From Desulfobacteraceae bacterium (GTDB lineage Bacteria > Desulfobacterota > DSM-4660 > Desulfatiglandales > HGW-15), in assembly GCA_003819975.1 (NCBI GenBank), contig RPPU01000025.1, forward strand, positions 1 through 16,111: 16,111 bases of DNA. Direction: 5' to 3'. Positions 1-15,745 of this stretch are shown here, one piece after another; position 1 is the stretch's first letter, and each line of letters opens with the position of its first letter. Under the pieces are notes generated by a model that saw only the letters and a list, made by a program, of their open reading frames with translations, was not told where the DNA came from and ran no database searches. The translations under genes and the position numbers were made by a program.

Positions 1-92
1 CAATGGATCGTAAAAAGTTTTTTTTCGGGTATTGATTTTATGTCATTGGTAACAAAAACAATACCCGAAAAAAAACTTTTTACGATCCATTG
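1..92. repeat. Perfect 34-bp inverted repeat at the window edge
   Basis: Bases 1-34 and 59-92 are exact reverse complements, separated by a 24-base spacer (35-58). The left arm begins at base 1, so the repeat may continue outside the window. It lies inside the coding frame of the glycosyltransferase read on the minus strand, and that frame stays open through both arms. A perfect repeat ending exactly at the sequence edge is typical of an assembly or amplification fold-back. The alternative is a real hairpin within a gene that stopped assembly. The repeat itself is certain; its biological reality is not. Confidence 0.95.
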
Positions 93-497
93 ATCGGCAA
101 AAAGATTTAGCGACATCTTTATAAAATTCAACCCCTTGGCCGGTTCAAGCATTCCGTGTTCTGTTTTCAAAGCTTTGATGCGGCAGTATCGCGCGGCCAG
201 ACCGCATAATATATTGGCTTTATAAGCATGCGTGTGAACCAGATTTATTTTTTTATTTCTGAATATGCCGACGATCTTCCGTAAACAGGAAAAATCGTAC
301 TTATAATTCGAATCAATCATATACAAGTCGATTCCCGACTGCTTTAAACGCTCGTAAAGCAATCCTTTGTTGAAAAGAACAACAATAGGCTTTACCCGGT
401 CATGTTTATTAAGCAATTCGGCGTAAGCATAGATGAATTGCTCGATCCCTCCATACAATTCGCCGGCCGTACATATCGCCAGATTTATCGGACGCAT
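1..497 (-). CDS. GT4-family glycosyltransferase, N-terminal part (3' end cut by window)
   Basis: About 165 codons are visible from an ATG at 497. The start follows the stop of the upstream gene by 13 bases. The N-terminus reads MRPINLAICTAGELYGGIEQ, with the Gly-rich loop (YGGIEQ, residues 15-20) usual in the acceptor domain of GT-B/GT4 enzymes. About residue 85 it has the family's VHTHAYKAN segment and then TEHG. The nucleotide-sugar-binding C-terminal half, with the E-x7-E motif, lies outside the window. It is probably a cytoplasmic enzyme adding a sugar to the lipid-linked repeat unit; donor and acceptor are unknown. Sequence beyond about base 58 is doubtful because of the inverted repeat. 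The GT-like reading continues there (VFVTND, then EKKLFTIH), but the spacing to the expected NG motif looks short. Confidence 0.82.
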   Translation of the reverse strand, partial: MRPINLAICTAGELYGGIEQFIYAYAELLNKHDRVKPIVVLFNKGLLYERLKQSGIDLYMIDSNYKYDFSCLRKIVGIFRNKKINLVHTHAYKANILCGLAARYCRIKALKTEHGMLEPAKGLNFIKMSLNLFADQWIVKSFFSGIVFVTNDIKSIPEKKLFTIH

Positions 498-510
498 CGA
501 ACCGATCCGT

Positions 511-1665
511 TCAACCTTTCCGCGGTTGCCAAGTAACCATGTTTTGTCCTTTTATAAATTTCAAAAAAGCCGCGGCACTGGATAAATTGAGAACGATAAA
601 GTAATATGGAAAAGTCGAAATTTTTCCGAGTTTGATCTTGAATTTTTCGGAAGCATAACCTAAAATCGCGAATGCATAAAAAAAACTTTGACCAAACAAC
701 ATGAATCTATAAGACAACCCGCGATCGAAGGAAATAACGTTCGTGATCAAGGCGGACAATATAAAAATCCAAGCAAAATAGCGCAACCATTTATGCGAAA
801 GCAATTGCCATGAAAACAGGCCATAGCGGAAGGGATTCAACAGATGCCGCATGCGCCATAATACATGCAACGCTCTGAGACTAACCCGCATTCGCATCTT
901 GAACTCATCTTGGCTATTATCCAAAGATTCTTCTCTTAAAACGGCTTTAGGCTCGTAAACAACCCTAAATCCTTTTTCTATGACTTTCAAAGGTAATATC
1001 AGATCCGGTAACAATGACGGATCGATGGTTTCATATAAATTGCTTCTGATTGCGTCTATGCCCCCATCCACGCCGACAATGGAACCGATCCCGCTTTCCC
1101 ATTCCCGCAATTTATTTTCATATTTCATATATAACCCGCATCCGGCGCCGGTCGGATTACCTGTTGAATTCGAGTAAATCATTTTTCCGGTCACATATCC
1201 GACCGTCGCATCGGCAAAATTTCGCGCCATATGAAATAAGGCATTTTCATCCCATATGGAATTGGCATCGGAAAAGCAAATGATCTCTCCCCTTGCCTGG
1301 GCTACGGCCCGATTCAGTGCGGCCGATTTACCCTGACGGGGTTCTTGGCGAACGAATCGGATATTGGGTTTCAAATGACTCTTGATTATTTCATCCGTTC
1401 CGTCATCGGATCCGTCGGAAACAATAATCAGTTCCATTTTATTTGGCGGATAGCGCAAACTTAATTTATTTTCCAAAGTGCGCTTGATAAACCGGGCTTC
1501 ATTGTAGGCCGAAATGATGATGCTGACAAACGGTTCCCTGTTCCTTTTATTAACGGATTTGGGACGCAGGCGACCTACCGCCCGGACGCAAACGGGATAA
1601 AGCAAATAACAATAGACCGTAACCGCCATGCTCAACCAAAATAACGTTTCAAAGATATGAATCAT
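511..1665 (-). CDS. Membrane-associated GT2-family glycosyltransferase
   Basis: This 384-residue protein transfers a sugar from a nucleotide donor at the inner face of the cytoplasmic membrane. An N-terminal membrane helix spans residues 6-28. The GT-A domain follows, with SIIISAYNEA (48-57), the donor motif VSDGSDDGT (82-90) and the metal-binding acidic motif FSDAN (131-135, D133). D221 in LLPDLILP is a likely catalytic acid. The RMRVSLRAL segment (257-265) replaces the Q/RxxRW motif of processive relatives. Three C-terminal hydrophobic segments lie near 293-312, 322-338 and 352-372, an architecture shared with poly-N-acetylglucosamine and cellulose synthase relatives. The start has a good AAGGAG site (1680-1675) nine bases upstream. 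It follows the deacetylase-like gene after 34 bases. Donor and linkage cannot be told. Confidence 0.9.
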   Translation of the reverse strand: MIHIFETLFWLSMAVTVYCYLLYPVCVRAVGRLRPKSVNKRNREPFVSIIISAYNEARFIKRTLENKLSLRYPPNKMELIIVSDGSDDGTDEIIKSHLKPNIRFVRQEPRQGKSAALNRAVAQARGEIICFSDANSIWDENALFHMARNFADATVGYVTGKMIYSNSTGNPTGAGCGLYMKYENKLREWESGIGSIVGVDGGIDAIRSNLYETIDPSLLPDLILPLKVIEKGFRVVYEPKAVLREESLDNSQDEFKMRMRVSLRALHVLWRMRHLLNPFRYGLFSWQLLSHKWLRYFAWIFILSALITNVISFDRGLSYRFMLFGQSFFYAFAILGYASEKFKIKLGKISTFPYYFIVLNLSSAAAFLKFIKGQNMVTWQPRKG

Positions 1666-1699
1666 ACCTTTAGTCTCCTTTGCTTCAAGTGCTTCGAGT

Positions 1700-2872
1700 T
1701 CAATCCGGATCTTTCCGGAAGCCTTTTAAGGTATTCCGGTAAGGTTTAAGCAGATAATCGCGATAAAGATTGGGGTTTCCCGATAAGCCCGATTCCGCGG
1801 CTTTAACGATGTTGTATGTCTCCCTGGCCGTCACATAATGAAGACAGTAGTTCTTTCCGTCATTGTATTTGCTTTCCAAATAAGAATAAATTTTTTCCAT
1901 TTCGCCTTTTAAAAAAATATTCATGCTTCCCGCGACCGCGCCGTGCGTATGAACCTTAATAAAAATCCAGTCCGGTTGACCTTGAACATGAATATTCGCC
2001 TTAACCCATTGATCGACTCTATGCATGGCGGGCGGACGTTTCCATTCGACCCCCCCGCTTTCAATGGAGGGAATCATTTGCAAGGGACGTTCAAAATGAA
2101 TTGTGAGGGGACCCTGAATCAGCATCAAGGCATCCATGGGATCGCTTTTACCGGCCGATACGTCGATGCCGGAGTTGTAGGATTTCGGTTTGGAAATGTC
2201 GTCTTTTGCATAATAGATGCTGTTGATTTTTTTCGGTTGAGCGGAGGTGTGGACGGCCGGAAAGGTAAAATCCGCATAACATCCTTCTTCATTCAAAATA
2301 TTAAGCTCGTTGTTAACACCGCAACAATTTTGATTATTTATGATCACGGAATTATCCAAGGCCCAATTCCCATGGATAAACCCGAAGGTTGTTTTTCCAT
2401 CCGTGGTGATCAAAGCGCCCATGCGGTTATAGAATTTCTTTGCGTCCTGCAATTTTTGCCGCAATGTTTCTTCCGTATCGTCATGATGATGAAGATGAAG
2501 TTCGATCTCTCCGAAACCCTCCGCGGTCAGCTTGCTGAGTAATCTAAAATGATCGAGACGTTCGGCGGCGCGTTCGGAAGGATAAAACCAGGAATGCCGC
2601 GGAGGCTTGTCATCCGCGTCCCGATGCCGTTGAACGGTAACGGGATATTGACTGACCCACTCCTTTACGATTTCGGTATTGGGGCCGGGTTCAAAATGAT
2701 CCGCCACCATGAACATGATGTGTACGGGCGGCCGGGCCGCGGCAAGCGCGCGGGTGTTTTTCCAAGTCCAAACTATATAGGAGGGAAACCAAATATAAAT
2801 TTTTTTTAAAACGATTTTATAGGCCAGATAGGCAGCCACGCCGCCCATCAACAACAAAATAATATAGATCAT
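1700..2872 (-). CDS. Membrane-anchored polysaccharide deacetylase-like protein, atypical
   Basis: This 390-residue protein starts with a hydrophobic anchor (about residues 1-22), so the rest probably faces the periplasm or the membrane surface. No standard NodB TFDDG motif is present. Instead it has FMVADHFEPG (54-63), a His cluster ELHLHHHDDT (124-133, H126 and H128-H130), GFIHGNWALDNS (164-175, H167) and VHTHGA (307-312). These look like metal-binding and catalytic positions of a divergent carbohydrate esterase/deacetylase fold, a substitution I infer rather than recognise. The ATG at 2872 overlaps the stop of the upstream GT4 gene by ATGA, so the two are probably translationally coupled. 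An A8 run near the N-terminus (2800-2807) stays in frame. A glycan deacetylase or hydrolase is the best guess; the function is otherwise unknown. Confidence 0.72.
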   Translation of the reverse strand: MIYIILLLMGGVAAYLAYKIVLKKIYIWFPSYIVWTWKNTRALAAARPPVHIMFMVADHFEPGPNTEIVKEWVSQYPVTVQRHRDADDKPPRHSWFYPSERAAERLDHFRLLSKLTAEGFGEIELHLHHHDDTEETLRQKLQDAKKFYNRMGALITTDGKTTFGFIHGNWALDNSVIINNQNCCGVNNELNILNEEGCYADFTFPAVHTSAQPKKINSIYYAKDDISKPKSYNSGIDVSAGKSDPMDALMLIQGPLTIHFERPLQMIPSIESGGVEWKRPPAMHRVDQWVKANIHVQGQPDWIFIKVHTHGAVAGSMNIFLKGEMEKIYSYLESKYNDGKNYCLHYVTARETYNIVKAAESGLSGNPNLYRDYLLKPYRNTLKGFRKDPD

Positions 2873-4044
2873 GCGATTTCGGCCGGCCTTTCCTGATGTA
2901 TTTGAATTCCAAACGGTTCGAAATACAAATTTAGGTAATATTTCTCCAGATTGGCGATCATCTTCTCCATCGCGTATTCTTTACAGACTTTTTGCTTGGC
3001 TTTTTCCGCGAATCCACGGCGCAAGGCGGGATTTTTGACAAGAGCCAAGACGGCTTCGGCCACCGCGCCGGAGTCTTGCGGCGGGATCAGCAAACCGTCC
3101 CGGTTGTGCGTAATGAGCTCCTTATTTCCGCCGACAGCGGTGGCCACGACCGGAATGCTTGCCGCCATATATTCAAGAAGAATATTTGAAAAGCCTTCCG
3201 AATCGGAAGTCAGCACGCCGATATCGATGACGGGCAATAGCGCGGCCACATCGTTCCGGCGGCCGGTAAAAATGATTTTATTTTCGATGTTCCGTGCCTT
3301 TGCCAATGCCCGGAGTTCATCTTTGAGATACCCGTCGCCGATGACTAGAAACGAAACCCGGTTTAGATCTTTCCCGATGATCGCGGCCGCTTCGATAAAA
3401 ATGTCGACCCTTTTGACTTTGCGGTTGAAATTGGCGATACATCCGATAACGATATTTTCCCGGGGTATGGACAGTTGCGCTTTAAGATCCCGGATATACG
3501 TCGCATCTTTTTCGGCAAAGTCGGCTAAGCGGATACCGTTATAAATAATGTCGATTTTGCTTTTGGGAACCTTTTCGACTTGAAATAAAATTTCTTTTAC
3601 CGCCTCCGAATTGACCAAAAAGCGGTTCACGAATCTGTTTATTTTCTTTAATCTTCCAAGCTCTTTCTTGTTGTACCAGAAACCCAGATCGCGACGGCTG
3701 GAAACGATGTTCTTCACCCCGGCAAGTTTGGCGGCCAATGCGCCAAGCAGATTGGCATCCGGAAAAAAAGTTTGCATGATATCTATTTGTTCCCTTTTAA
3801 GGAAAGAGCATAACCGAAAAATTTTTCGGACCATCCCAAGTGACTTGAAACTCCGGATATCGAGTACCAGCTTTTGTCCGTTGATTTCACATTTTTCGAG
3901 CATTTCTGAATTTCTGAAACAAACCAGATAAACGATGAACCGGTCGGCGTCCAGCATGCGCATGGTTTCGATAAGCTGTTTTTCCGTCCCTCCCATTTCA
4001 AGCACATCGATCATGAAACAGATTTTAATTTGTTTTTTGTTCAT
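2869..4044 (-). CDS. GT4-family glycosyltransferase
   Basis: This complete 391-residue GT-B enzyme is probably cytoplasmic. The N-terminal Rossmann half has MIDVLEMGGTEKQ (11-23), the Gly-Gly loop of the family. The interdomain region has IIYNGI (166-171). The C-terminal half has FNRKVKRVDIFIEA (206-219) and VIGDGYLKDEL (234-244). The GT4 E-x7-E motif is SEGFSNILLE (282-291; E283 and E291), followed by PVVATAVGGNKELI. Length is normal for GT4. It begins 24 bases after the ATP-grasp/GNAT gene; the upstream ribosome site is weak (AGG about 15 bases away). Its stop overlaps the start of the deacetylase-like gene. Substrate specificity cannot be read from the sequence. Confidence 0.93.
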   Translation of the reverse strand: MNKKQIKICFMIDVLEMGGTEKQLIETMRMLDADRFIVYLVCFRNSEMLEKCEINGQKLVLDIRSFKSLGMVRKIFRLCSFLKREQIDIMQTFFPDANLLGALAAKLAGVKNIVSSRRDLGFWYNKKELGRLKKINRFVNRFLVNSEAVKEILFQVEKVPKSKIDIIYNGIRLADFAEKDATYIRDLKAQLSIPRENIVIGCIANFNRKVKRVDIFIEAAAIIGKDLNRVSFLVIGDGYLKDELRALAKARNIENKIIFTGRRNDVAALLPVIDIGVLTSDSEGFSNILLEYMAASIPVVATAVGGNKELITHNRDGLLIPPQDSGAVAEAVLALVKNPALRRGFAEKAKQKVCKEYAMEKMIANLEKYYLNLYFEPFGIQIHQERPAEIA

Positions 4045-4068
4045 TTGCAGTGACGCCTGCCTGGCGGT

Positions 4069-4736
4069 CTATATGACATAACAGGGAACCAAGGCGTCGG
4101 AAACGAGCGACAGCTTTTTTTTGCCGTTGGCGCAAAACCGCTCCAACACAAGGTTGACCGGTCCCATTTTGACGCGCCAAATGATGGAATGCTTTACCCA
4201 GCCGATGCGGGACAAGGTCCCCGTGATAATCGTGTTGTCGGGGCGGTTCATCTCCCAAAATTTCCGGATCCGCTCTTTCCGATAATGCGAAAAAAAAGCA
4301 TCGTTAATGCTGCGATACACGCCCTGCCCCCGCGCTTGCGGGAGGGTATGGCTGCCGTATTTATAGACTTCGTCGTCGGCCAAATCGAGCAGTTTTCCGG
4401 CGCCTTTGATAAAACAGACGCCTTGATGAGCCCAGGAAATTCCCAAATATTGACCATCCCGCAGACCGACAAAGCAGAGGTCCCCGTGACCGAAGCGATA
4501 TTTCAGAATGCTTTCATCGATATGGAACGCGGTTGACAAACCCGGCAACGGTTCCCGGACAATCCTAACCTCGCACTGGCATACCGCCGGTCGGTGGTAG
4601 CCGATATCGAGATACCGGATGTCATAGCGGTTCCAGGCAATGATGCTTCTGAGCTTGTGTGCACAGGCGGAACGCGTCATTATTTTTTTAAGCGCACCGA
4701 GCCAGAGACTTTGATCCGCGCTTCCGATAGGCTCAT
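4069..4736 (-). other. Hidden independent GNAT gene, frameshifted at an A7 run
   Basis: An ATG at 4736 opens the frame MSLSEARIKVSGSVRLKK followed by TAA. This matches the start of the neighbouring paralog (MTATSEARIKFS), with seven of eight residues identical across SEARIK(V/F)S. One extra A in the A7 run, or a -1 ribosomal slip there, joins it to the GNAT domain (IMTRSACAHK onward). The rebuilt protein has 222 residues; the paralog has 220. The start sits in an ATGA arrangement with the restored stop of the ATP-grasp gene, as at three other junctions in this window. I infer that this was, or still is, a separate GNAT gene. Whether the shortened run is real, phase-variable or an error cannot be told here. 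Confidence 0.72.
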
Positions 4737-6081
4737 AGGTTAACTTGTTTGTACGGCAGTCGGAACCGGATGCGCATGACCGCGGCATCGGGAACCGCGA
4801 CTGAATCTGCTTTTTACAGCGAAGCGGCGCTTTAGTTCCCGGTAAAATTTCCAAACCACGCAGAAAATAGGAATACGTTATGCGCAGATTAGTTTCTATT
4901 TTCAGCATCCAAGACGCCAATAACGGGATGGGATCGTCCCAGGCAAACACATGGTACTCGATCTTTCCCGGCAAAAAAATCAAAGATTTCAGCCAGTTCC
5001 AAAGTGTCCACTCCCCCGTCTTCCGGTACGCGAGCATGGCGGCAAAATCCGCCCCCAACCAAAGCCACCGTCGGGATTTCCCGAAAGGCGGTTGCTCAGG
5101 CACGGCCGAACCCACGGCATCGAAATAGTGCAGCAAAGGCAGATTGACTCCGCAAGCGGTGTCGAAAATCGCCCAAAGGCTGTAGCGGGGGTTGATTTCC
5201 AGAATGTAATCTTGCAGCGTTTGCGGATGCCGTTTAAGATTGATGTTGGCGGCCCCGGTATAGCCGATTTTTTCGAGCGCGTTCAGGCATAACTTTTCTA
5301 TGGCGGGCTCTTCCGCATATTGGACGTAGCAACCCGCGCCGAAATGAATGGGGTGGATGCGCAGTTTATGGCCCACGATCTTTCCGCGTGCCTTCCCGTC
5401 CCGGTCAAGGTAAGCGTGAAAATCGAAATGCTGTTGATCGTCACCCGGGATATATTCCTGGATCATGACTTCACCCGTTAGCGGGGGAATCATTTGCAGG
5501 GTTTGTTTCAGAACCGCCGGATTTTCGATTCGGATCGCTTTGCGGATTCCGATCGACCGGATGATTTCGGATTGATGCCACAACCGCTGGCGGACGGGTT
5601 TTAAAATACAGGGATAACCGAGCGCTTCGGCGTAAGCCATGGCTTCGGCATTCGCGAGCGGGGTAAAAGTCCTCGGCACGGGGAGGTCGAATTGCTTCGC
5701 CAGATTGCCGAATTGGCTTTTATCGATCAGCTTGCCGATTAATTTGTCCGGAGCGAGTAAAATGTGAAAATACTTTTGAAGCCTCTCTCTGGATTTCGAA
5801 ACGAGCAGGACGTCCGACTCGGCATTCAAAAAAACGACCGGTTTATGTTCCTGGCGTTCTCCGTAACGTTCCAGGATTTGCAGCGCTTGCTCCGAGAACC
5901 GATCCAGATTGGGCAGAGTGACATATTCCGAGCAGTACCGGGATGCCCGTTCAAAAGTCCGGGACTCTTCCCGGGCCACAATGACCGGGATGCCCTCCCT
6001 TCCGAGACTTCGAACGATGCCGATTCGACCCAGGACAAGCGCTTTGTTTCTTACCGGCAATGGGCCGTGCAGTCGCATCAT
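4069..6081 (-). CDS. ATP-grasp ligase read through into a GNAT-like domain (apparent fusion)
   Basis: The open frame encodes 670 residues. Residues 1-410 are an ATP-grasp enzyme of the carboxylate-amine ligase type: a preATP-grasp Rossmann region (VLGRIGIVRSLGREGIPV), the ATP-binding lysine in CILKPVR (158-164), QEYIPGDDQ (208-216), and metal-binding YILEINPRYS (292-301; E295, N297). Such enzymes join an amino acid or other amine to a carboxylate using ATP. Residues 468-670 are a GNAT-like domain with HGDLCFV (532-538), the acetyl-CoA loop QARGQG (582-587) and the terminal N-x-LSRIGW pattern. It is paralogous to the 220-residue protein encoded just upstream. The linker (421-467) is rich in Arg, Ser and Cys and looks out of frame; two hidden reading frames there suggest two genes joined by indels. 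An AAGGAG site (6098-6093) precedes the start; ATG 6078 is an alternative. A T8 run at 4290-4297 is in frame. Confidence 0.85.
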   Translation of the reverse strand: MMRLHGPLPVRNKALVLGRIGIVRSLGREGIPVIVAREESRTFERASRYCSEYVTLPNLDRFSEQALQILERYGERQEHKPVVFLNAESDVLLVSKSRERLQKYFHILLAPDKLIGKLIDKSQFGNLAKQFDLPVPRTFTPLANAEAMAYAEALGYPCILKPVRQRLWHQSEIIRSIGIRKAIRIENPAVLKQTLQMIPPLTGEVMIQEYIPGDDQQHFDFHAYLDRDGKARGKIVGHKLRIHPIHFGAGCYVQYAEEPAIEKLCLNALEKIGYTGAANINLKRHPQTLQDYILEINPRYSLWAIFDTACGVNLPLLHYFDAVGSAVPEQPPFGKSRRWLWLGADFAAMLAYRKTGEWTLWNWLKSLIFLPGKIEYHVFAWDDPIPLLASWMLKIETNLRITYSYFLRGLEILPGTKAPLRCKKQIQSRFPMPRSCASGSDCRTNKLTYEPIGSADQSLWLGALKKIMTRSACAHKLRSIIAWNRYDIRYLDIGYHRPAVCQCEVRIVREPLPGLSTAFHIDESILKYRFGHGDLCFVGLRDGQYLGISWAHQGVCFIKGAGKLLDLADDEVYKYGSHTLPQARGQGVYRSINDAFFSHYRKERIRKFWEMNRPDNTIITGTLSRIGWVKHSIIWRVKMGPVNLVLERFCANGKKKLSLVSDALVPCYVI
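4681..4691 (-). other. In-phase A AAA AAA slippery heptamer with adjacent stop
   Basis: In the frame starting at 4736 the codons read TTA AAA AAA TAA. This gives the X XXY YYZ heptamer A AAA AAA (4689-4683) in the correct phase, immediately before a stop. A -1 slip continues as ATA ATG ACG into the GNAT domain. The same run could allow transcriptional slippage or replication slippage (A7/A8 switching). I see no obvious strong downstream stem-loop or well-placed internal Shine-Dalgarno stimulator. Function is inferred from layout only. Confidence 0.5.
4733..4818 (-). other. Hidden original C-terminus of the ATP-grasp protein
   Basis: At codons 422-424 the ATP-grasp frame reads TGT AAA AAG over an A5 run (4815-4811). 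With one more A, the frame would continue for 25 residues, beginning ADSVAVPDAAVM and ending YKQVNL. It would stop at TGA 4735-4733, which overlaps the hidden GNAT ATG by ATGA. That tail has ordinary residue composition, unlike the Arg/Ser/Cys-rich tail of the current frame. The rebuilt ATP-grasp protein would have 449 residues. This is inference from frame structure, weaker than the GNAT case because no homologous C-terminus is available here. Confidence 0.5.
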
Positions 6082-6220
6082 TCTTAAAAGATCTCCTTAA
6101 CCCGGTTAAAAAGAAGCATCACAGGAACTCTAAAAATACGTATTTTATCGATTTTACTTTTCATATTTGGTTTATTTTCTTGGGTCTCGTTACCGATAAA
6201 GCGGCATTTAGAGATGCCTG
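6082..6220 (-). other. 139-base intergenic gap with two short perfect palindromes
   Basis: This gap lies between the free-standing GNAT and the ATP-grasp gene. It holds a 14-base perfect palindrome, AAAATACGTATTTT (6133-6146), and a 13-base one, TTAACC-G-GGTTAA (minus strand, 6109-6097), directly before the AAGGAG ribosome site. A small hairpin GGCAT/ATGCC (6203-6218) follows the GNAT stop; it lacks a U-tract, so it is not a convincing terminator. No clear sigma-70 promoter is seen. A 26-codon open frame (6164-6084) ends two bases before the ATP-grasp start but has no ribosome site. An internal operator or RNA processing site is possible. Confidence 0.4.
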
Positions 6221-6883
6221 TCAGATGATATAACCCGTTTTCGGTTCCCGGGAGATGCGGTAATTGCATTTCTTGATACCCTGGACGCTTTGTTCGCGCA
6301 AAATTCCAAAGGTCGCAATCCGGATATATCGCAAATTCGATTCAACCCTGAATCCGTTTTCATGAAGAATCGCCAACATCTGTCTGTTTCCGGGGGATAC
6401 CAGGCTGCAATAACGCTTGATTCCTTTTCCCGAGTAATATTTAAAAAATTCATTAATCAGGCGGGAAAAAACCCGGTTCCGGCGGACGTTGGGCACCGTA
6501 AACGCATTATAGAGATAGACCGTATCGTCGCCGATATTCAAGTGCTTTCCGGCTCCGCGGATATAGCATTTCCCGCGATGACCCCAAACCATGCTGAGCA
6601 TCGCCTGGTTTGTTCCGAGCATAAAACACAGGTCTCCGTTTTGGAACCGGCGGGCCAGACTTTCTTCCGCAATCGGAAATACGCTTTGAATTTCGGGTTT
6701 GTCTTCACTGAGGACTTGGAGAACATCCTGACGGCTTGAAGTCTCGTCGATCGCAACCCTATCGGAACATAAAAGCATGTAACGATCATATAAAATCGGC
6801 GAGTGGACTCTGCTTTTCAACCGGTCGGAGAAACCGGCCATAAAAGGACTGAATTTAATTCTGGCTTCCGATGTCGCGGTCAT
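6221..6883 (-). CDS. GNAT-like acyltransferase, paralog of the ATP-grasp-linked domain
   Basis: This 220-residue protein probably transfers an acyl group from acyl-CoA to an amine, perhaps an amino sugar or amino acid of the polysaccharide; the substrate is unknown. It has NGDLCFML (82-89), WGHRGKCYIRGAGKHL (100-115), the strand YLYNAFTVP (123-131) and a classic GNAT end motif SPGNRQMLAILHENGF (163-178). The CoA-loop position reads NVRRNR (132-137) instead of Q/RxxGxG, so CoA binding may be altered or lost. The ATG at 6883 is chosen because AGAGG lies about nine bases upstream and the first residues (SEARIK) recur in the hidden paralog start at 4736; an internal ATG at 6841 has no such support. 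It overlaps the end of the upstream polymerase-like gene by 29 bases. Confidence 0.8.
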   Translation of the reverse strand: MTATSEARIKFSPFMAGFSDRLKSRVHSPILYDRYMLLCSDRVAIDETSSRQDVLQVLSEDKPEIQSVFPIAEESLARRFQNGDLCFMLGTNQAMLSMVWGHRGKCYIRGAGKHLNIGDDTVYLYNAFTVPNVRRNRVFSRLINEFFKYYSGKGIKRYCSLVSPGNRQMLAILHENGFRVESNLRYIRIATFGILREQSVQGIKKCNYRISREPKTGYII

Positions 6884-8225
6884 AGGTAGGAACCTCTTTC
6901 CCGGCGCGGCCGGTTTTATCGTTGGGAACGGTTCGGCTCAATATTCTCAAGCCGACCACGGACAAACCGCCGTTTAGATACCAGACATAGTAAGTGGAAT
7001 TGCCCGCCCATAGGGCGAACACCAATTGGGTTATCAGCAGAACCGAAATCAGATGGCTGAACTGGAAGAAATAGGCGTTTTCTTCCCCGCGCTTGATGCT
7101 TTTTTGCCTGATTAAAGCCAGGTTTTTGAATACGCTTTTTAAGTAAATGAAAAACAACAGAAATCCAAGGATGCCGACCTCGACCAGAACCCCGGTATAA
7201 AGACTATGAGAAACCAAAGCCTCGCCGGTGTAATTAAAATTGACCTCGGCGAACGTACCGATGCCGTAACCGAAAACGGGCCTGTTTAAAAACAGGTTAA
7301 ACGCTTTTTTTATGTGCTCGATCCGGTTCTCGGCGCTCGCTCGGCCCGCGACGTTTTTTTCAATCAGCGACTCATAGCGCACCTTATTCATATCGCCCAT
7401 TTGCGTCCAGATAAAAAGGATCGCCGCGATGGCCAAAAGGAATCCGATGATTTTGTGTTTGCCCTTGAAGATACATAAAACCACGGCGACGACGGCGGTT
7501 AAAAAACCGGATCGCGACCCCGTAAGGATCAGTACGGCGAAGAGAAAAGGAAAAGAAGCAAACAGCAAAATACGGGCGGCCTTGGTCTTATAATAATGCA
7601 GATAAAAATAAGCGATGAGGCCCGCCTGGACGGACAGCATGGCCAGGCCATTCGGATTGCCCCCGATTTTATTGGTTAAGCCGGTCAGGCGATAAAAAGG
7701 CGTGCCGCCCATGGAATAATCCACATACCCCAAATAGCCTGTGCCGAGATAGGCGAAAAAGGGCTCAAAGCAGATCATCCAGATGCAAAGCAAATAGACG
7801 AACATAAACCGTTCCAATTTTTGTTGCGTGTCGATGAAAAATATCGTGAAAAAATAAAAACTGCCGACTTTCAGAAACTCCAGAAGGCCTTTCTTCATGA
7901 CGGTGCCGGGCCATTTGGACATCGGAATGGTTAATATCATATAGAACACGAACAGCAGCAGCAACAAAGAGGTGGATGACCGCAACAAACCGTTCTCCGG
8001 ACCGGAAGGCCTGCTTGCGACCGAAAAGAGGATTGCCAACAGCAGGAGCGCATTCAGAATCATGCCGATATGCAACGGCGCCAGCGAAGCGATCCGATAC
8101 GGCAAATTCATAAAATAAATGACTGTAAATAACAAAAATAAATAATAGCCGATATTGGACGGACTTTTTACGGCCGCTATGATGCGCTCTTTTCCAATAT
8201 TTAATTCGGTAGTTTTATAGAACAT
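6855..8225 (-). CDS. Wzy/O-antigen-ligase family polysaccharide polymerase or ligase
   Basis: This multi-span inner-membrane protein (456 residues from ATG 8225) joins repeat units or ligates the glycan on the periplasmic side. About ten to twelve hydrophobic segments are visible. Family signatures (Wzy_C) are LTGSRSGF (234-241), then after a polar periplasmic loop NRPVFGYGIGTF (314-325), a His in ALVSHSLYTG (H340) and LVEVGILGF (347-355). The frame extends to an ATG at 8315, but those 30 extra residues lie within the conserved end of the ligase gene, lack membrane character and have no good ribosome site. Starting at 8225 leaves an 11-base overlap, in keeping with the tight packing here. Whether it polymerises or ligates cannot be decided. 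Confidence 0.88.
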   Translation of the reverse strand: MFYKTTELNIGKERIIAAVKSPSNIGYYLFLLFTVIYFMNLPYRIASLAPLHIGMILNALLLLAILFSVASRPSGPENGLLRSSTSLLLLLFVFYMILTIPMSKWPGTVMKKGLLEFLKVGSFYFFTIFFIDTQQKLERFMFVYLLCIWMICFEPFFAYLGTGYLGYVDYSMGGTPFYRLTGLTNKIGGNPNGLAMLSVQAGLIAYFYLHYYKTKAARILLFASFPFLFAVLILTGSRSGFLTAVVAVVLCIFKGKHKIIGFLLAIAAILFIWTQMGDMNKVRYESLIEKNVAGRASAENRIEHIKKAFNLFLNRPVFGYGIGTFAEVNFNYTGEALVSHSLYTGVLVEVGILGFLLFFIYLKSVFKNLALIRQKSIKRGEENAYFFQFSHLISVLLITQLVFALWAGNSTYYVWYLNGGLSVVGLRILSRTVPNDKTGRAGKEVPTYDRDIGSQN

Positions 8226-9558
8226 GGCTGATGGCAAACCGGTATTTACCGGACCTTTCCTGGGGGATGTTCCCAATTTTATGGATTTGAATTTGGCTGT
8301 TACTTCCGAAAACATTTTTCATCTCGACGATCAATTGCGCCTCGCTGGCTTCGCTATAGATCGGTTGCGGCACGATATTCAGCCGGAACCGGTTTACGGC
8401 ATCCTGAACGATCTGCATCTGTTCGATGCCTTTTATAGCGGTCAAAGTTCTCTCGATCAACGACACTCCGGCCACCAGGGCGCCTTGCTCGGTTTTCAGA
8501 AAATCGGCCGTGCGACCCACAACCTGCTCCATTAAAGGCAAGCCCCGGCCGCAGGAGCAGCTGCGCGCGGACGGAACGCCGAAATCTTCGATTTGATAGC
8601 GAATCAACGGCATGCCCCGGTTTTCCAGATCCGTAACCACGATGGCGCCTTGTTCGCCTGCTTCGGCCGGGGTGCCGTCGCTTTTCAAAAACTCGATGTA
8701 CAAGTGGTCGACATTAAGGTGCAACCCTTCATGTTTCTCGCATTCACAGGCAATCAGACCAACCTCCTCGCAGCCGTAGCGGTTGGTGACCTTGCAGTGG
8801 AACGTCTTTTCCATGAAGGTTCTTTCCCGTGGCAAAAGCATCATGGAACTGCAAATGACGCCCCGCGGTTGTAATCCGCCGATTTTATTTTCAGCGACGA
8901 ATTTGGCGAAGATGAATACGGAATGGGCATGACCGAAAATAACGGAAACGCCGAAGCTTTGAAACCGGGAAGCGAATGCCGCCAGGCTTTCCCGGTTGAG
9001 ATTCATCGTATCGAGATAGATGACCGGGTCCAGCAGGGCCCGTCTTATTTTTTTCTTCCAGGTATCCGCAACCGGCGGATTGCCCCAGATCGCGGCCCGC
9101 TTCATTCCCAAATCCCAACCGGCCCACCGGTCGCTGCGCATGGCCGCGGCGATCCGTTGCGTCACGCAGTCTTCATCCAAAAAGATTTGCAAAGCTTTTC
9201 CGGTCGATCCGCCGGTTTTGGCCGAGGCCAGGTTTTCCTTGGCATACTTTTGGGAAATCAGGTCTTCCGGATTGAGTTGGATTTGTTTTTTGGTAAGCAG
9301 CGGAATATTCAGAAAATCCCGGTAGCTCCGGATGTCCGCCGGACGGATCTTTTGTTGATCGAACAAGCGTCGATAATAGGCGCTGTGGTTATAGGCCTCC
9401 TGAACCATAGTCTTCAGTTTGGCCCATTGTGCTTCCTTTAATTCCGCGGCCGAATGCCACTGGGAATTTTCAAGTTTCCTCAAGGCTTTCAGCTTGTGCC
9501 GGCCGTCCTTCAGGTCCCAGAGCGGGTAAAATAGATTTTTTGCAAGCCAAGCGTTCAT
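8215..9558 (-). CDS. PaaK/CapK-type AMP-forming acyl ligase
   Basis: This 447-residue cytoplasmic enzyme is of the phenylacetate-CoA ligase-like branch of the adenylate-forming family, often found in capsule and exopolysaccharide loci (CapK). The P-loop is AKTGGSTGKA (113-122). Further motifs are NRYGCEEVG (259-267), a Cys/His segment CECEKHEGLHLNVD (271-284), VVTDLENRGMPLIRYQIEDFG (its tail at 319-327 is the ATP-binding aspartate region), CSCGRG (334-339), GRTADFL (348-354) and a terminal lysine in RSGKYRF (435-441). It activates a carboxylic acid as acyl-AMP, then usually acyl-CoA; the acid is unknown. The start has AAAGGA about 14 bases upstream. It could supply acyl groups to the GNAT proteins of this operon. 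Confidence 0.88.
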   Translation of the reverse strand: MNAWLAKNLFYPLWDLKDGRHKLKALRKLENSQWHSAAELKEAQWAKLKTMVQEAYNHSAYYRRLFDQQKIRPADIRSYRDFLNIPLLTKKQIQLNPEDLISQKYAKENLASAKTGGSTGKALQIFLDEDCVTQRIAAAMRSDRWAGWDLGMKRAAIWGNPPVADTWKKKIRRALLDPVIYLDTMNLNRESLAAFASRFQSFGVSVIFGHAHSVFIFAKFVAENKIGGLQPRGVICSSMMLLPRERTFMEKTFHCKVTNRYGCEEVGLIACECEKHEGLHLNVDHLYIEFLKSDGTPAEAGEQGAIVVTDLENRGMPLIRYQIEDFGVPSARSCSCGRGLPLMEQVVGRTADFLKTEQGALVAGVSLIERTLTAIKGIEQMQIVQDAVNRFRLNIVPQPIYSEASEAQLIVEMKNVFGSNSQIQIHKIGNIPQERSGKYRFAISHVL

Positions 9559-9587
9559 TTTTCAACCCATCCTTTTGATAGATTTAG

Positions 9588-10205
9588 TTAGTCCGGGATT
9601 TTCCGCACGGCTCTGGCCGGGTTGCCCATGGCAACGACATTGGCGTCGATGTCGGAGGTGACCACGGCCCCGAAACCGATAACGCTGTTCTCCCCGATAG
9701 TCACGCCTTTTAGAATGCCGGCTTGTCCGCCGACCCAGACATTGTCGCCGAGCCGCACCGGGGCGACGCCTACGGCCGCCTCGGCGCTGTCCCGGTTTTC
9801 GCTGAGGCTGTGGAAGTCATTGTCCATGATGCGGCAGTCGGCCAAAATACACCGCGAACCGATTTCGATTCGCTTTGCGGCGCCGAAACGTGTTCCGTTT
9901 AGAAAAACCTTTTTCCCGATTTTGATGACCGCTTCGCTGCGGTGCGTGAACGGCGTGACGACTCCGGCGCAGCGGATGTCGTCGCCGAAAATGATCTGAC
10001 CCGGTCCGCGAATGATCAGCTTTCCGTTGATGCGGACTCTTTTTCCGAAAACGGCTTTTTTCAATATTTTTTCATATTTTATTCTATACCAGAAACTCTT
10101 GACGAGAGCCGTCGCATAAACCAAGGCCTGCCAAGGATTCCGCAAGGCTTTTCGCAAATGAGCCCATGCTGGGGAAGGTGTTGTAGTCTGCATTTTAGCG
10201 TTCAT
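9588..10205 (-). CDS. Hexapeptide-repeat (left-handed beta-helix) O/N-acetyltransferase
   Basis: This 205-residue trimeric LbH-fold enzyme probably acetylates a sugar using acetyl-CoA. Imperfect hexapeptide repeats run from about residue 55 to 190 (for example IKIGKKVFL, IEIGSRCIL, VRLGDNVWVGG, VTIGENSVIGFGA). The likely catalytic histidine is H132 in DNDFHSL, as in maltose/galactoside-acetyltransferase relatives, and the C-terminus has the usual VAMGNPARAVRKI. The N-terminal 50 residues are basic and helical and may contact membrane or partner. The ATG at 10205 has only a weak GGA upstream; ATG 10193 is an alternative. It follows the flippase after a 104-base structured gap and precedes the ligase by 29 bases. 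Confidence 0.9.
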   Translation of the reverse strand: MNAKMQTTTPSPAWAHLRKALRNPWQALVYATALVKSFWYRIKYEKILKKAVFGKRVRINGKLIIRGPGQIIFGDDIRCAGVVTPFTHRSEAVIKIGKKVFLNGTRFGAAKRIEIGSRCILADCRIMDNDFHSLSENRDSAEAAVGVAPVRLGDNVWVGGQAGILKGVTIGENSVIGFGAVVTSDIDANVVAMGNPARAVRKIPD

Positions 10206-10309
10206 CGAGTTCCGGCTGACAAGAAATTACCGATAATAAAAAGCGCTGTCATTCATCCGTTTATTCCGGCCTCTTTGGCCGGATTCATGCTTTTGCGGTC
10301 CGGCGCTTT
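10206..10309 (-). repeat. Nested inverted repeats between flippase and acetyltransferase
   Basis: On the minus strand, AAAAGCGC (10310-10303), starting at the last base of the flippase stop region, can pair with GCGCTTTT (10246-10239). Inside this lies a 7-bp hairpin, TCCGGCC-AAAGA-GGCCGGA (10283-10265). The right arm of the outer stem ends in TTTTTATT, so it resembles a leaky intrinsic terminator with an insert. It may lower expression of the downstream genes or protect an RNA end. No promoter is evident. Confidence 0.45.
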
Positions 10310-11773
10310 TCAGGAGCGAAAAAAAAATTTTGAATGGGTAAGAAAAGGAATCATCTGCCGGAACATCAGGATTTCTTCCCGGTCGATGATGCGTAAAGCG
10401 CCCAGAGCGACGGTGTACGAACAGACGCCCAGTAAAATGGTAAACGGCAAATTGATCTGAACCAACCATAGAATCAGGCTCATGAAAAGCGTGGCCAATA
10501 AAGGCTTGATAATGCTTTTCAACACCACGGTTCCGGCAAAACTGGTGACGTATATCCGATAGAGATAAACCGTGCCGATGCATCCTGAAATCAGCAAGGC
10601 CGCGGCCGCGCCTCCTGCGCCGTAGAGCGGAATCAACCAGAAATTAAGCGCAATATGCGCGAGAATAGACAACAGATTCGTGATCGTCACGTGCCGGATT
10701 TTATCGGCGGCGGTCAGCACATAGGCAATCAAGCTTAGAACAAAGGTAATAAAGATTCCCAGGCCCAGAATGCGCATCACGCTTACGGCATTTGCATAAT
10801 CCGCACCATAAATAAGCGGGATAACGGACGGCGCGACGAAATAGATGCCGGCTGAAATGGGCAGCCCGATGATGGCCATGTATTTAATCGTCAGATTGCC
10901 GGATGCCACCAGGGATTTTGTGGATTCATAATATTGCCTTGAAAAAACAGGAAACAGCACGTTGGACACCAGGTTCGGAATCAAGTAGAGAATGTTAATG
11001 AGTTCATTGGCCGCGCTGAATATACCGACTTCCGTATTGTTCACCAATTTGGAAATCATGATGACGTCGATCCGGTTCTGGATGATCGCTACCGCGCTGA
11101 CCAAAAAGAACGGCGTGGAATTTTTGAATGTATTCAGAATCAGGGGCCCCGATGTTTTCCAGATGATTTTGAAAAATTTGCGGTGAATAATCCCGGTGCC
11201 CAGGAACGCCAGCAAGAAATAGGTTATATTAATGATGGAGGCGATCCAAAAAATATTCCCTTGCAGGTTGACGATCAACAGAATGCCGGCAAGTCCCAAA
11301 ACGCTTCGGGATATTTCCAGTAGGGCATTGTACTCCATTTTTTCATAGGCCCGGTAAACGGCGGAGTTGGTTTGAGTGATGGCGTAAAAAAATAGAGCCG
11401 AGGATATCATCAGGATAATCTTGACGTCCCGCAACGGATAACGCAGCAGATAAAGCGCCAGGCAGAGCATCCCGAATGAAAAAATCGTCAAAAGCAGCTT
11501 CAGAATAATGTTGGTTCCGTAATATTGCTGCGATAAAGTCTTATCACGGGCCACATCCTTGATGAAAAGACCGTTCAGACCGTAATTGGCCGCAACGGAA
11601 AACAGAAGGAAATAAGAGATGGCTAAAGAATAAATTCCATAATCCGCCGGACCGAGATAGCGCGGCAGAATCAGAAGCGTGACCGAGCCGAGTACGCGAC
11701 CCACGATCTCGCTGGTGGTCAAGGAAACGATATTTTTCCCGATATTTTTTAACGTAGCGGCCTTTGGGTTCAT
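10310..11773 (-). CDS. Wzx-type polysaccharide flippase (MOP superfamily)
   Basis: This 487-residue membrane protein moves the lipid-linked oligosaccharide across the inner membrane. About 12-14 hydrophobic segments are spread along it. The N-terminal signature is IGKNIVSLTTSEIVGRVLG, then ILPRYLGPADYGIYSLA (35-51), typical of the polysaccharide-synthase/flippase family. The frame extends upstream to ATG 11974, but those 67 residues lie inside the deacetylase gene, are not membrane-like and are rejected. ATG 11773 has AAGG (11784-11781) seven bases upstream and overlaps the deacetylase stop by ATGA. A run of nine T (minus strand, 10327-10319) near the end encodes FFF just before the stop; slippage there would change only the last residues. 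Confidence 0.92.
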   Translation of the reverse strand: MNPKAATLKNIGKNIVSLTTSEIVGRVLGSVTLLILPRYLGPADYGIYSLAISYFLLFSVAANYGLNGLFIKDVARDKTLSQQYYGTNIILKLLLTIFSFGMLCLALYLLRYPLRDVKIILMISSALFFYAITQTNSAVYRAYEKMEYNALLEISRSVLGLAGILLIVNLQGNIFWIASIINITYFLLAFLGTGIIHRKFFKIIWKTSGPLILNTFKNSTPFFLVSAVAIIQNRIDVIMISKLVNNTEVGIFSAANELINILYLIPNLVSNVLFPVFSRQYYESTKSLVASGNLTIKYMAIIGLPISAGIYFVAPSVIPLIYGADYANAVSVMRILGLGIFITFVLSLIAYVLTAADKIRHVTITNLLSILAHIALNFWLIPLYGAGGAAAALLISGCIGTVYLYRIYVTSFAGTVVLKSIIKPLLATLFMSLILWLVQINLPFTILLGVCSYTVALGALRIIDREEILMFRQMIPFLTHSKFFFRS

Positions 11774-12783
11774 ACCGCCGCCTTCAGGAACGACCGGTAT
11801 TTCGGCAAGATTTCCTTGATATTTTTTTTGATCGAATTCAATCCCGTGATGTTGGAACGAAAAAAATCGTCGCATTGCACTCCCGGAAAAATTCGGCCGA
11901 TAGCCAGGCGGTCGAGCTTGCGGAAATCGCCGATCAATTCCGATTGAGTCGTGAAAGCATAGTGATAGCCGCATTGTTGAGCCAAACGTTTCGTCTCCTC
12001 GTTATAATCCGATGACTGGCCGTTGGGATAAGCCACCGTGCAGACCGGTCGCTGTAATTCCGTTTCGATCCGCTTCTTTGAATGGGCAAATTCGTGAACG
12101 GCGTCCATGGGTTTTAAATGCGACAAAATTTCGTGCGAACGGGTGTGGGAACCGAATTCGATCCGATTCTTGGCCATTTCCCTGACCTGGTCCCAGGATA
12201 GCGGCGCATATTCCCCGACCGGCTTGTCCGGTATGGCGAGATTCATCCGGCCGGCCCAAGTCAGGATTGCCTCCATTCGCGGTCGGTAATCCAGGGAATT
12301 GAGGTGAAGGTAAATACGGAGACGTGTCTCGCCTTTCGCGATTTCGTCGGTCAAATTCAGTGTGAATTTCCTCCCGCCGATCTCCGCGGTCGGTGTTCCG
12401 CTCGGCAGTGCTTCCAAAACATACCGAATCTTATCGAACCAAAGCCAGTGCGTGCCGTCGATAAAATCCGTCGTCAAAAAAATCGCCGCCGGAAGCCCGT
12501 ATTTCTTCAGCACCGGATAGGCATGAGTGTAATTGTCTTGATAACCGTCATCGAAAGTAATCAAAAGCCCGTTCCGGATCGGCTTGCGCCCGGCTATCAG
12601 GTCCAGGAATTCGCTTAAACCCAGGATATTGAAATGTCCGGCTAAATACCGAATTTGGACTTCGAATTGCGCGGGGTCGATTATAAACGGATTTTTCGAA
12701 GTATTGACCCGGTGGTAGAACAAAATCCGGAAATGGTTGCGGGATATAATCCGCGCCAGGCTATGAAAAGGTCTCAAGAGCAT
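11770..12783 (-). CDS. NodB-family polysaccharide deacetylase (CE4)
   Basis: This 337-residue enzyme removes N- or O-acetyl groups from a glycan using a divalent metal. It has LFYHRV near the N-terminus, motif 1 ITFDDGYQDNY (75-85; D78 catalytic base, D79 metal), motif 2 SHTRSH (212-217; H213 and H217 metal ligands) and YPNG (252-255). A 100-residue insertion between motifs 1 and 2, containing THWLWFDKIRY, resembles deacetylases from exopolysaccharide loci of exosortase-type systems. No signal peptide is obvious, though residues 1-22 are amphipathic. The frame extends to ATG 12933, inside the methyltransferase gene; ATG 12783 fits the family length and lies 14 bases after the methyltransferase stop. 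The ribosome site is weak. Confidence 0.9.
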   Translation of the reverse strand: MLLRPFHSLARIISRNHFRILFYHRVNTSKNPFIIDPAQFEVQIRYLAGHFNILGLSEFLDLIAGRKPIRNGLLITFDDGYQDNYTHAYPVLKKYGLPAAIFLTTDFIDGTHWLWFDKIRYVLEALPSGTPTAEIGGRKFTLNLTDEIAKGETRLRIYLHLNSLDYRPRMEAILTWAGRMNLAIPDKPVGEYAPLSWDQVREMAKNRIEFGSHTRSHEILSHLKPMDAVHEFAHSKKRIETELQRPVCTVAYPNGQSSDYNEETKRLAQQCGYHYAFTTQSELIGDFRKLDRLAIGRIFPGVQCDDFFRSNITGLNSIKKNIKEILPKYRSFLKAAV

Positions 12784-12797
12784 TGTCGGTGCACGCG

Positions 12798-13805
12798 TCA
12801 GGCCCCCGGTTGTTTTTTGAGACGCACGAAGAGCAAATCGCCCAACAGCCGACTCAATCCGGATCGGGCCAGGATGAATTCGAGGAACATTTGCGTTTTC
12901 GCATTGAACCGTTTTGCAAACGGAAAAAAGCAATTGATACCGCCCAACTGATCGATTTTCAGATGGGGTTGGAATAGCTTTTTAATCTCCTGAAAAGTAA
13001 AGTTTTCGAAATAAATCTTTCCGCCGTGAAAACCTTTTTTGGGAACCGCATGCCTGAATCTTTTTTTAAGGTTGTAATTATAGGTCGTTAAGACCGCCGT
13101 CCCGTCAACGCGTAAAACGCGTTGGATTTCTTTCACGAACTTTTGCTGTTCCGTCGGTCCCGGGATGTGTTCCAGAACCTGAGCACTGACGACTTTATGA
13201 ACCGTATCGGCCTTCAGGGGCAACCGGCAGACGTCCGCTTTCATAAACAAGATATTATCTTGGCATTCATCGCTCAATTGGCTGCGTAATAGTCTCAGGG
13301 ACTCCATGGAAAAATCGATGGCAAAATAATCCTTGAATGGCCGGCCGACGATTTCCCGCGTGATGCGTCCCGTGCCGCAGCCCAGTTCCGCAATAACATC
13401 TTCTTTGTTTGATTTGAACGCGTTCCGGAATGCACGGGCTTCATTCAAACCGTAAACCCAGTATCCGAACGTATGATATTGGGCAGCCTGGGCGTTGCGG
13501 ACTTTGATTTCATTTTTTTTGCAGTACACGATCATTCTGTCCTGTTCAGCCGTTGTCTCTTCCAAACCGGCGTGTTGCCCCATGGCGGATTCATCGTCGC
13601 ACAAGCAATCCGGCAACGCGGTGAGAATGCCTTCGCTTACGGGATAGCATTTATTGCAGGAACCGCACCGCAAAAACCCGGTGGAAAGGACATCGGACTC
13701 TTCGGTACCCCGTATTTTTTTCAATTGATCCTTTTCGATCCGGTAAACATCGAAATGATCCGATCCGCAGAAGCATTTTAAATACTTTAAATAGCTCAGT
13801 TTCAT
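12798..13805 (-). CDS. SAM-dependent methyltransferase with N-terminal Cys ribbon
   Basis: This 335-residue cytoplasmic protein has an N-terminal ribbon with C11-x-C13 and C47-xx-C50-xx-C53, resembling Trm112-like zinc ribbons often joined to class I methyltransferases. The Rossmann domain starts near residue 136: motif I IAELGCGTGR (138-147), acidic D164 in AIDFSMESL, D191 in KADVCRLPL, and AQVLEHIPG (208-216). The C-terminal part (KGFHGGKIYFENFT) is typical of the Methyltransf_11 type in sugar loci. It probably methylates a sugar or its substituent; the acceptor is unknown. The start at 13805 has only a weak ribosome site. It lies 45 bases after the GNAT gene. Confidence 0.87.
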   Translation of the reverse strand: MKLSYLKYLKCFCGSDHFDVYRIEKDQLKKIRGTEESDVLSTGFLRCGSCNKCYPVSEGILTALPDCLCDDESAMGQHAGLEETTAEQDRMIVYCKKNEIKVRNAQAAQYHTFGYWVYGLNEARAFRNAFKSNKEDVIAELGCGTGRITREIVGRPFKDYFAIDFSMESLRLLRSQLSDECQDNILFMKADVCRLPLKADTVHKVVSAQVLEHIPGPTEQQKFVKEIQRVLRVDGTAVLTTYNYNLKKRFRHAVPKKGFHGGKIYFENFTFQEIKKLFQPHLKIDQLGGINCFFPFAKRFNAKTQMFLEFILARSGLSRLLGDLLFVRLKKQPGA

Positions 13806-13850
13806 AAAACGGTCATGGGCCTGTTATAAACGCGCGTCGGTTGATAGGGT

Positions 13851-15742: not shown

Positions 15743-15745
15743 GGC

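What the first reader, a model, noticed from the sequence alone, without database searches (positions are those of the whole stretch)
4683..4736. Hidden GNAT start frame joined to its domain by a perfect -1 slippery heptamer
ATG 4736 opens a short frame (MSLSEARIKVSGSVRLKK, then stop) whose SEARIK matches the start of the adjacent paralog at 6883 (MTATSEARIKFS). The frame ends at A AAA AAA TAA, in exact -1 frameshift phase. A -1 slip, or an A8 allele, gives a 222-residue GNAT against 220 for the paralog. This could be programmed frameshifting, transcriptional slippage or a phase-variable acyltransferase in a surface-glycan operon, a classic setting for contingency loci. A one-base error is the dull alternative. 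Longer A/T runs nearby (T8 at 4290, A9 at 10319, T9 at 15730) stay in frame, which argues mildly against general homopolymer errors.
Basis: partly seen in the sequence, partly recalled or inferred. Interest (0 to 1): 0.8.

Follow-up and report, generated by a model that had tools for sequence, protein, structure and literature searches.

The report
Two neighbouring sugar-coat genes read as one
Two neighbouring genes of a bacterial surface-sugar cluster, an ATP-using ligase and a probable acyltransferase, read as one continuous gene here, and the supposed ribosome-slipping signal between them is most likely the remnant of the second gene's old start rather than a working switch.

Summary
The sequence facts are right. 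On the minus strand ATG 4736 opens MSLSEARIKVSGSVRLKK, which ends at A AAA AAA TAA (A7, 4683-4689) in exact -1 phase to the frame of the GNAT-like domain. SEARIK resembles the start of the paralog at 6883 beyond residue shuffles. The proposed switch is not supported: the ATP-grasp frame runs straight through the A7 into the GNAT-like domain (670 aa), so no slippage is needed; neither kind of stimulator scanned for stands out; the run is shorter than typical slippage tracts; no homolog seen shares the arrangement. Homologs explain the anatomy: 115 of 119 listed relatives (of 254 found) have stand-alone ligase length, ending near residue 413; a Zixibacteria locus has the two genes separately; P0003 (44% to the window, its ligase part 77% to the Zixibacteria one) has them apparently fused, with a different linker. 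The window's linker (residues 413-448) is unlike coding DNA in the fused frame. Best reading: two formerly separate genes joined by non-programmed frame changes, ATG 4736 a fossil start. The join may be real (slightly favoured) or a sequence error; no reads or second assembly were available. Low interest, cheap decisive test.

The parts
4069..6081 (-). 670-aa ORF: ATP-grasp ligase (about 1-415) running on in frame into a GNAT-like domain (about 468-670)
   Evidence: ORF; PF02786 32.5 bits, cut-off 19.8; residues 1-410 at pLDDT 85 or more in 39 of 41 blocks of ten, C-terminal helix 385-411; GNAT-type matches for the last 203 aa
4846..6081 (-). ATP-grasp part; 115 stand-alone homologs have a projected end at the equivalent of residue 413 (median)
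4738..4845 (-). Non-conserved linker (residues 413-448), not coding-like in the fused frame (-11.5 over 36 codons; 0 of 4086 true-frame windows of other genes as low)
   Evidence: Coil at low confidence in the model (pLDDT 28-41 in 421-460), but the GNAT part is also below 50 there, so the model says little
4733..4813 (-). Third-frame stretch with fairly coding-like composition, ending in a TGA that overlaps ATG 4736 (ATGA)
   Evidence: function unproven
4683..4736 (-). Short frame MSLSEARIKVSGSVRLKK, probable original GNAT start
4683..4689 (-). A7 run, A AAA AAA in the phase of the short frame
4678..4680 (-). In-frame ATG (M468) overlapping the short frame's stop as TAATG; alternative GNAT start giving 203 aa
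4069..4680 (-). GNAT-like acyltransferase domain
   Evidence: 28% identity to the paralog; 26.9% over 130 aa to P0121 and 31.5% over 130 aa to P0003; Foldseek hits of acetyltransferase type with a model of pLDDT 51.6; no Pfam hit
6221..6883 (-). Paralogous GNAT-like protein, 220 aa, starts MTATSEARIKFS and overlaps the upstream ORF by 29 nt
   Evidence: (PF00583 E 0.031, below cut-off)

Best explanation
Two genes that are normally separate and adjacent, an ATP-grasp ligase and a GNAT-like acyltransferase of a surface-polysaccharide cluster, have become one open reading frame through non-programmed frame changes (loss of the ATP-grasp stop or frame somewhere in 4845-4737, and a change of frame at the A7). 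Translation of the sequence as written runs straight through and makes a 670-aa two-domain protein, with no slippage needed. ATG 4736 with SEARIK is the fossil of the GNAT gene's own start. Shown: the open frame, the homologs' separate and (as a predicted protein) fused states, the non-conserved and non-coding-like linker, the SEARIK resemblance. Inferred: that the joined state is real in the organism, that it is young, and that the fusion is made and works.
For: Of 119 listed relatives other than the window (254 found; only 368-1172 aa could be found), 115 are 368-470 aa, with a projected end at window residue 413 (median; 5-95% 403-433; none beyond 460). L001 (Zixibacteria) has ATP-grasp 3980-5230 and a separate GNAT 5487-6173. 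P0003 is a predicted protein with both parts in the same order, 44% over 97% of the query, its parts 77% and 64% identical to the two L001 proteins, so joined and separate states seem to occur among close relatives. The linker 412-467 gives no BLASTP match to P0003 396-470, though so short a query is a weak test. The linker scores -11.5 in the fused frame, lower than all 4086 true-frame windows of the other ORFs, as expected of a stretch that only recently became a linker. SEARIK resemblance. The joined frame is open in 309 of 4000 dinucleotide shuffles of 4683-4845, which favours a real fusion over a chance open frame. None of the other 27 runs of 7 or more interrupts an ORF.
Against: At least two events are probably needed. 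No relative above 65% identity and no second assembly shows either state. A linker unlike coding DNA fits an error as well as youth. On a second measure (coding against noncoding) real ORFs of the window fall to -8.6 and the linker to -7.2, so composition is not decisive. In the SEARIK stretch the two measures disagree: frame contrast favours the fused frame (5.6 against 1.3), the other slightly favours SEARIK (2.1 against -0.1). Three unrelated places in the window match the paralog's N-terminus as well as SEARIK does.
Confidence: 0.45

Rival explanations
1. Sequence or assembly error: the organism has two ordinary separate genes, and base-level errors in 4845-4683 merge them on paper.
For: Stand-alone length is the rule among listed homologs (115 of 119) and L001 has separate genes; the linker is unlike coding DNA in the fused frame; all six split gene models tried score 5.4-12.6 bits better than the fused one, with breakpoints chosen by hand and no penalty for them; singleton frame transitions are described as likely indel mutation or sequencing error (PMC3711429, passages).
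Against: None of the other 27 runs of 7 or more interrupts an ORF (ORFs not otherwise checked against homologs for hidden frame changes); probably two errors within about 160 bases would be needed; the joined frame is open in only 309 of 4000 shuffles; an apparent fusion exists in P0003.
Confidence: 0.33
2. SEARIK is a coincidence or irrelevant: the GNAT part is translated as part of a fusion, or starts at the in-frame ATG 4680, which overlaps the short frame's stop (TAATG) and could be used by re-initiation.
For: ATG 4680 lies in the GNAT frame; frame contrast in 4736-4683 is better in the fused frame than in the SEARIK frame (5.6 against 1.3); no SEARIK at the N-terminus of P0121 or in the GNAT part of P0003; three unrelated places match as well and the 22-nt repeat is not exceptional.
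Against: No Shine-Dalgarno-like sequence is seen before ATG 4680; a start there leaves 203 aa against 220 in the paralog; SEARIK beats residue shuffles.
Confidence: 0.13
3. Programmed -1 frameshifting, transcriptional slippage or A7/A8 phase variation lets the cell make a free 222-aa GNAT from ATG 4736 besides, or instead of, the fusion.
For: A_AAA_AAA in exact phase next to a stop; 39 heptamers (61% of 64) are shift-prone in E. coli even without stimulators, though the text seen gives no figure for A_AAA_AAA (PMC4066793, section 17), and an insertion-sequence cluster with A_AAA_AAA is called a proven case with a stem-loop (same paper, passage); a branched hairpin starts 7 nt after the run.
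Against: No SD-like element in the 51 bases before the run and no clear ribosome-binding site before ATG 4736; hairpin energy equals shuffles (96 of 200 as good, z 0.04; 34 of 200 for a longer stretch); A7 is below the nine bases given for a large proportion of genomes (PMC1088944, passages), and 11 longer runs sit in open frames here; no homolog seen shares it; no slippage is needed to express the domain.
Confidence: 0.06

Closest known systems
P0003, predicted ATP-grasp/GNAT protein (638 aa) on a 2214-bp JGI contig
   Same: Same two parts in the same order; 44% identity over 97% of the query
   Different: Its join is short and keeps the GNAT N-terminus (aligned to P0121 from P0121 residue 2); no detectable similarity to the window's linker; DNA not seen
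L001, Candidatus Zixiibacteriota MAG JAAEQD010000062.1, GY839_04160 and GY839_04155 (P0004, P0121)
   Same: ATP-grasp gene followed by a homologous GNAT-like gene
   Different: Two separate genes with a 256-nt gap; no SEARIK at the start; no fused frame
Bacterial -1 frameshift sites of A_AAA_AA(A/G) type (insertion sequences; PMC4066793, sections 13 and 17 and passages)
   Same: The heptamer and its phase
   Different: No SD-like stimulator, no better-than-chance hairpin, no conservation seen; the downstream frame is already open from upstream

Membership tests
Programmed -1 ribosomal frameshift site | Slippery heptamer in correct phase in the upstream frame | tested here: met
   A AAA AAA TAA
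Programmed -1 ribosomal frameshift site | Stimulatory SD-like element 6-17 nt upstream (rule of PMC4066793, section 13) | tested here: not met
   None found in 4690-4740
Programmed -1 ribosomal frameshift site | Stimulatory hairpin 4-10 nt downstream | tested here: inconclusive
   Branched hairpin starts 7 nt after the run but is as stable as shuffles (96 of 200, z 0.04; 86-nt stretch 34 of 200, z -0.94); pseudoknots not examined
Programmed -1 ribosomal frameshift site | Conservation of the transition in homologs | tested here: not met
   115 of 119 listed relatives have stand-alone length, P0003 reads as fused, L001 is separate; no relative above 65% identity was available
Programmed -1 ribosomal frameshift site | Both products made | not testable with these tools
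   No proteomics or reporter data
Transcriptional slippage site | A/T run of about nine (PMC1088944, passages) | tested here: not met
   Run is seven
Phase-variable contingency locus | Run length varies between cells | not testable with these tools
   No reads; no second assembly (P0001 has 1 member)
ATP-grasp ligase (PF02786 / PF15632) | Profile score above cut-off | tested here: met
   PF02786 32.5 bits against 19.8; PF15632 only 23.6 against 29.1
GNAT acyltransferase | Profile score above cut-off | tested here: not met
   No Pfam family up to E 10 for the domain; paralog PF00583 15 bits against 20.7
GNAT acyltransferase | GNAT fold | tested here: inconclusive
   The 50 Foldseek hits listed (of 1267 at E up to 10; 12 at E up to 0.001) are mostly described as acetyltransferases, the rest bear names I recall as such; best E 2.6e-4; but pLDDT 51.6 and TM by query length at most 0.39
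Natural ATP-grasp/GNAT gene fusion | Open frame through both parts, and a fused homolog | tested here: met
   P0003 as a predicted protein
Natural ATP-grasp/GNAT gene fusion | Linker conserved or coding-like | tested here: not met

The most novel reading that the evidence does not exclude
The A7 is a working -1 frameshift site: the same message gives a 670-aa ligase-acyltransferase fusion from the ATP-grasp start and, from an internal start at 4736, a free 222-aa acyltransferase by slippage, so that fused and free enzyme are dosed against each other in one polysaccharide operon.
Probability: 0.05. Interest if true: 0.6.

Novelty: new member of a known kind. Interest (0 to 1): 0.2.

Why it matters
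If the fusion is real, it is a second joining of the same two enzymes, with a linker unlike that of P0003, which points to a shared step (ligase product handed to an acyltransferase) in building a surface glycan, and it catches a fusion young enough to show the old start. If it is an error, it warns against reading slippery-run switches from one contig. The frameshift reading would be of wider interest but has little support.

Tried and rejected
Programmed frameshifting, transcriptional slippage and phase variation: rejected as leading explanations for the reasons given under the rivals.

An old, stable fusion with a selected linker: disfavoured by the frame contrast and by the unlike linker of P0003.

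Composition-based gene models: all six split models beat the fused one, by 5.4 to 12.6 bits, but breakpoints were chosen by hand without penalty and real ORFs have stretches as poor, so I do not treat this as proof. In one search some training ORFs were entered out of phase; I rely, which used corrected frames, for scores. Structure prediction of the whole ORF left both linker and GNAT part below pLDDT 50, so it does not tell whether the linker is disordered.

Searches that gave little: own genome not held; first genome-contig scan, 4 stretches, none confirmed; protein search with the GNAT domain alone, none at E 0.001 among 87 candidates; GNAT profile search, 8 proteins; viral contigs, one 21% relative; 132 genomes of the phylum of L001 and 392 drawn from the phylum of L002 (at most 4 candidates scored per genome), none at E 1e-80 beyond the two already known; plasmids, 78 records, all below 60% identity, one opened, where the gene after the ligase is a metallophosphoesterase. 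Literature: one listing of 9 papers, of which I saw passages of three and two sections of one; ATP-grasp with GNAT, fusion and exopolysaccharide, 2 papers, listing only; a five-term ATP-grasp search, none; a phase-variation search, 4 papers, listing only.

Full report
What is there. The minus-strand ORF 4069-6081 encodes 670 residues. Residues 1 to about 415 are an ATP-grasp ligase (PF02786, 32.5 bits against a cut-off of 19.8), and AlphaFold2 models this part with high confidence up to a C-terminal helix ending at residue 411. Residues from about 468 are GNAT-like. Pfam does not recognise the domain even at E 10, but it shares 28% identity with the paralog at 6221-6883 and 31.5% over 130 residues with the C-terminal part of P0003. 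A low-confidence model (pLDDT 51.6, four sequences) gives Foldseek hits of which the 50 listed are mostly described as acetyltransferases, with TM by query length at most 0.39. Calling it a GNAT is therefore likely but not shown by profile.

The observation. ATG 4736, the 18-codon frame, the A7 at 4683-4689 and the -1 phase are exactly as described. The resemblance of its SEARIK to the paralog's N-terminus is better than residue shuffles (6 of 20000; 4 of 2000), and the four nucleotide differences in SEARIK are all synonymous (319 of 200000 random sets). These are not independent tests and the pair was chosen because it matched. Against it, three unrelated places in the window reach the same score against the paralog's first 30 residues (17 of the 40 printed stretches, 55 of 18174 in all, 23 of the printed ones being the paralog itself), the DNA repeat is no better than others nearby, and P0121 and P0003 show no such N-terminus. 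I take it as moderate evidence that ATG 4736 was the start of a free-standing GNAT gene.

Why no switch is needed. The ligase frame has no stop from 6081 to 4069, so ribosomes that translate the ligase enter the GNAT-like domain without any shift. The short SEARIK frame would have to be started internally, and no clear ribosome-binding site precedes ATG 4736, whereas the paralog's ATG 6883 has a purine-rich stretch upstream (sequences). The motif lacks an SD-like stimulator (rule from PMC4066793 section 13). The hairpin downstream starts at a suitable distance but is no more stable than shuffles (z 0.04 for 71 nt, -0.94 for 86 nt, -0.11 for 119 nt including the short frame). At seven bases the run is shorter than the nine at which selection against slippage is evident in a large proportion of genomes (PMC1088944, passages), and this contig carries 11 runs of eight or more inside open frames. 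For the other side: A_AAA_AAA is a motif of the right kind, and one insertion-sequence cluster with it is called a proven case (PMC4066793, passage).

What relatives show. The fused query found 254 proteins at E 0.001 among the 7990 candidates scored (proteins outside about 368-1172 aa could not appear); 120 were listed, one of them the window itself. Of the other 119, 115 are 368-470 aa and their projected ends fall at window residue 413 (median); none reaches beyond 460, and one alignment ends inside 421-467. The four longer ones are P0003 (638 aa), two proteins that look like two ligase modules (P0043, P0045) and P0064, with a PF13480 acyltransferase region apparently in front of the ligase (Pfam as listed; order judged from sequences). 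In the Zixibacteria locus L001 the ligase and a homologous GNAT-like gene are separate, 256 nt apart. In L002 a PF13480 acyltransferase ORF lies 138 nt downstream of the ligase. So a ligase with an acyltransferase after it was seen in both genomic loci, but not in the one plasmid locus opened, where a metallophosphoesterase follows. P0003, 77% and 64% identical to the two L001 proteins, reads as an in-frame fusion that retains the GNAT N-terminus; I saw only the protein, not its DNA.

The linker. In residues 413-448 the fused frame is unlike the coding DNA of the other ORFs: -11.5 over 36 codons, against a minimum of -9.9 among 4086 true-frame windows. A third-frame stretch at 4813-4733 does better (4.7 over 27 codons including its stop; between the 5th and 25th percentiles of true frames and the 95th and 99th of off-frame stretches) and ends in a TGA that overlaps ATG 4736, the ATGA form of junction that this cluster also uses at 2869-2872 and 14564-14567. 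Six gene models with separate genes beat the fused model by 5.4 to 12.6 bits, with hand-chosen breakpoints and no penalty. Against this, real ORFs have windows down to -8.6 on that measure (the linker -7.2), and in 4736-4683 the frame contrast prefers the fused frame (5.6 against 1.3), while the other measure slightly prefers SEARIK (2.1 against -0.1). The linker is therefore probably not an old coding linker, but composition alone cannot say whether it is a young real one or a product of errors.

Real or error. For a real join: the joined frame is open by chance in 309 of 4000 shuffles, none of the other 27 long runs interrupts an ORF, and P0003 suggests that the fusion is viable. For an error: probably two changes are needed, the linker is not coding-like, and singleton frame transitions are described as likely errors or indel mutations (PMC3711429, passages). 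No genome, reads or second assembly was available. I give 0.45 to a real, young, non-programmed fusion, 0.33 to an error, 0.13 to coincidence or re-initiation at ATG 4680, and 0.06 to a programmed or phase-variable mechanism.

Setting and function. Neighbours scanned include a glycosyltransferase (2869-4044), an O-antigen-ligase/polymerase-like protein (6855-8315: PF04932; TIGR03097 below its cut-off), an AMP-ligase-like protein (8215-9558, NCBIfam matches below their cut-offs), a radical SAM protein (14564-15742) and a third GNAT (13851-14567), which fits a surface-polysaccharide cluster. From general knowledge of ATP-grasp enzymes (recalled), the ligase would join a carboxylate to an amine on a glycan or its precursor and the acyltransferase would then modify it; this is inference.

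Noticed in passing
window 1-16111: A7/T7 matches are over-represented (40 overlapping matches, shuffled mean 21.7, 1 of 200 shuffles as many); 28 runs of 7 or more (27 A/T, one C) all lie inside open frames, although long A/T runs are reported as avoided in some genomes (PMC1088944, passages).
   Followed up: partly
window 4733-4813, minus strand: Short third-frame stretch KADSVAVPDAAVMRIRFRLPYKQVNL with fairly coding-like composition, its stop overlapping ATG 4736 as ATGA.
   Followed up: partly
window 4678-4682, minus strand: Stop and start overlap (TAATG): the short frame's stop overlaps an in-frame ATG of the GNAT-like domain, a possible re-initiation site.
   Followed up: partly
window 13851-14567, minus strand: A third acyltransferase in the same cluster, this one a clear Pfam GNAT (PF00583, 44.6 bits).
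   Followed up: no
window 8215-8315, minus strand: The ORFs 8215-9558 and 6855-8315 overlap by 101 nt; the downstream gene probably starts at a later ATG.
   Followed up: no
P0064 (593 aa) and L002 5363-6493: A PF13480 acyltransferase appears fused to, or encoded downstream of, a related ATP-grasp ligase, so ligase-acyltransferase pairing recurs with a different acyltransferase family.
   Followed up: partly
window 1700-2872, minus strand: A 390-aa protein of the cluster with no Pfam match at E 0.01 or NCBIfam match at E 0.1.
   Followed up: no
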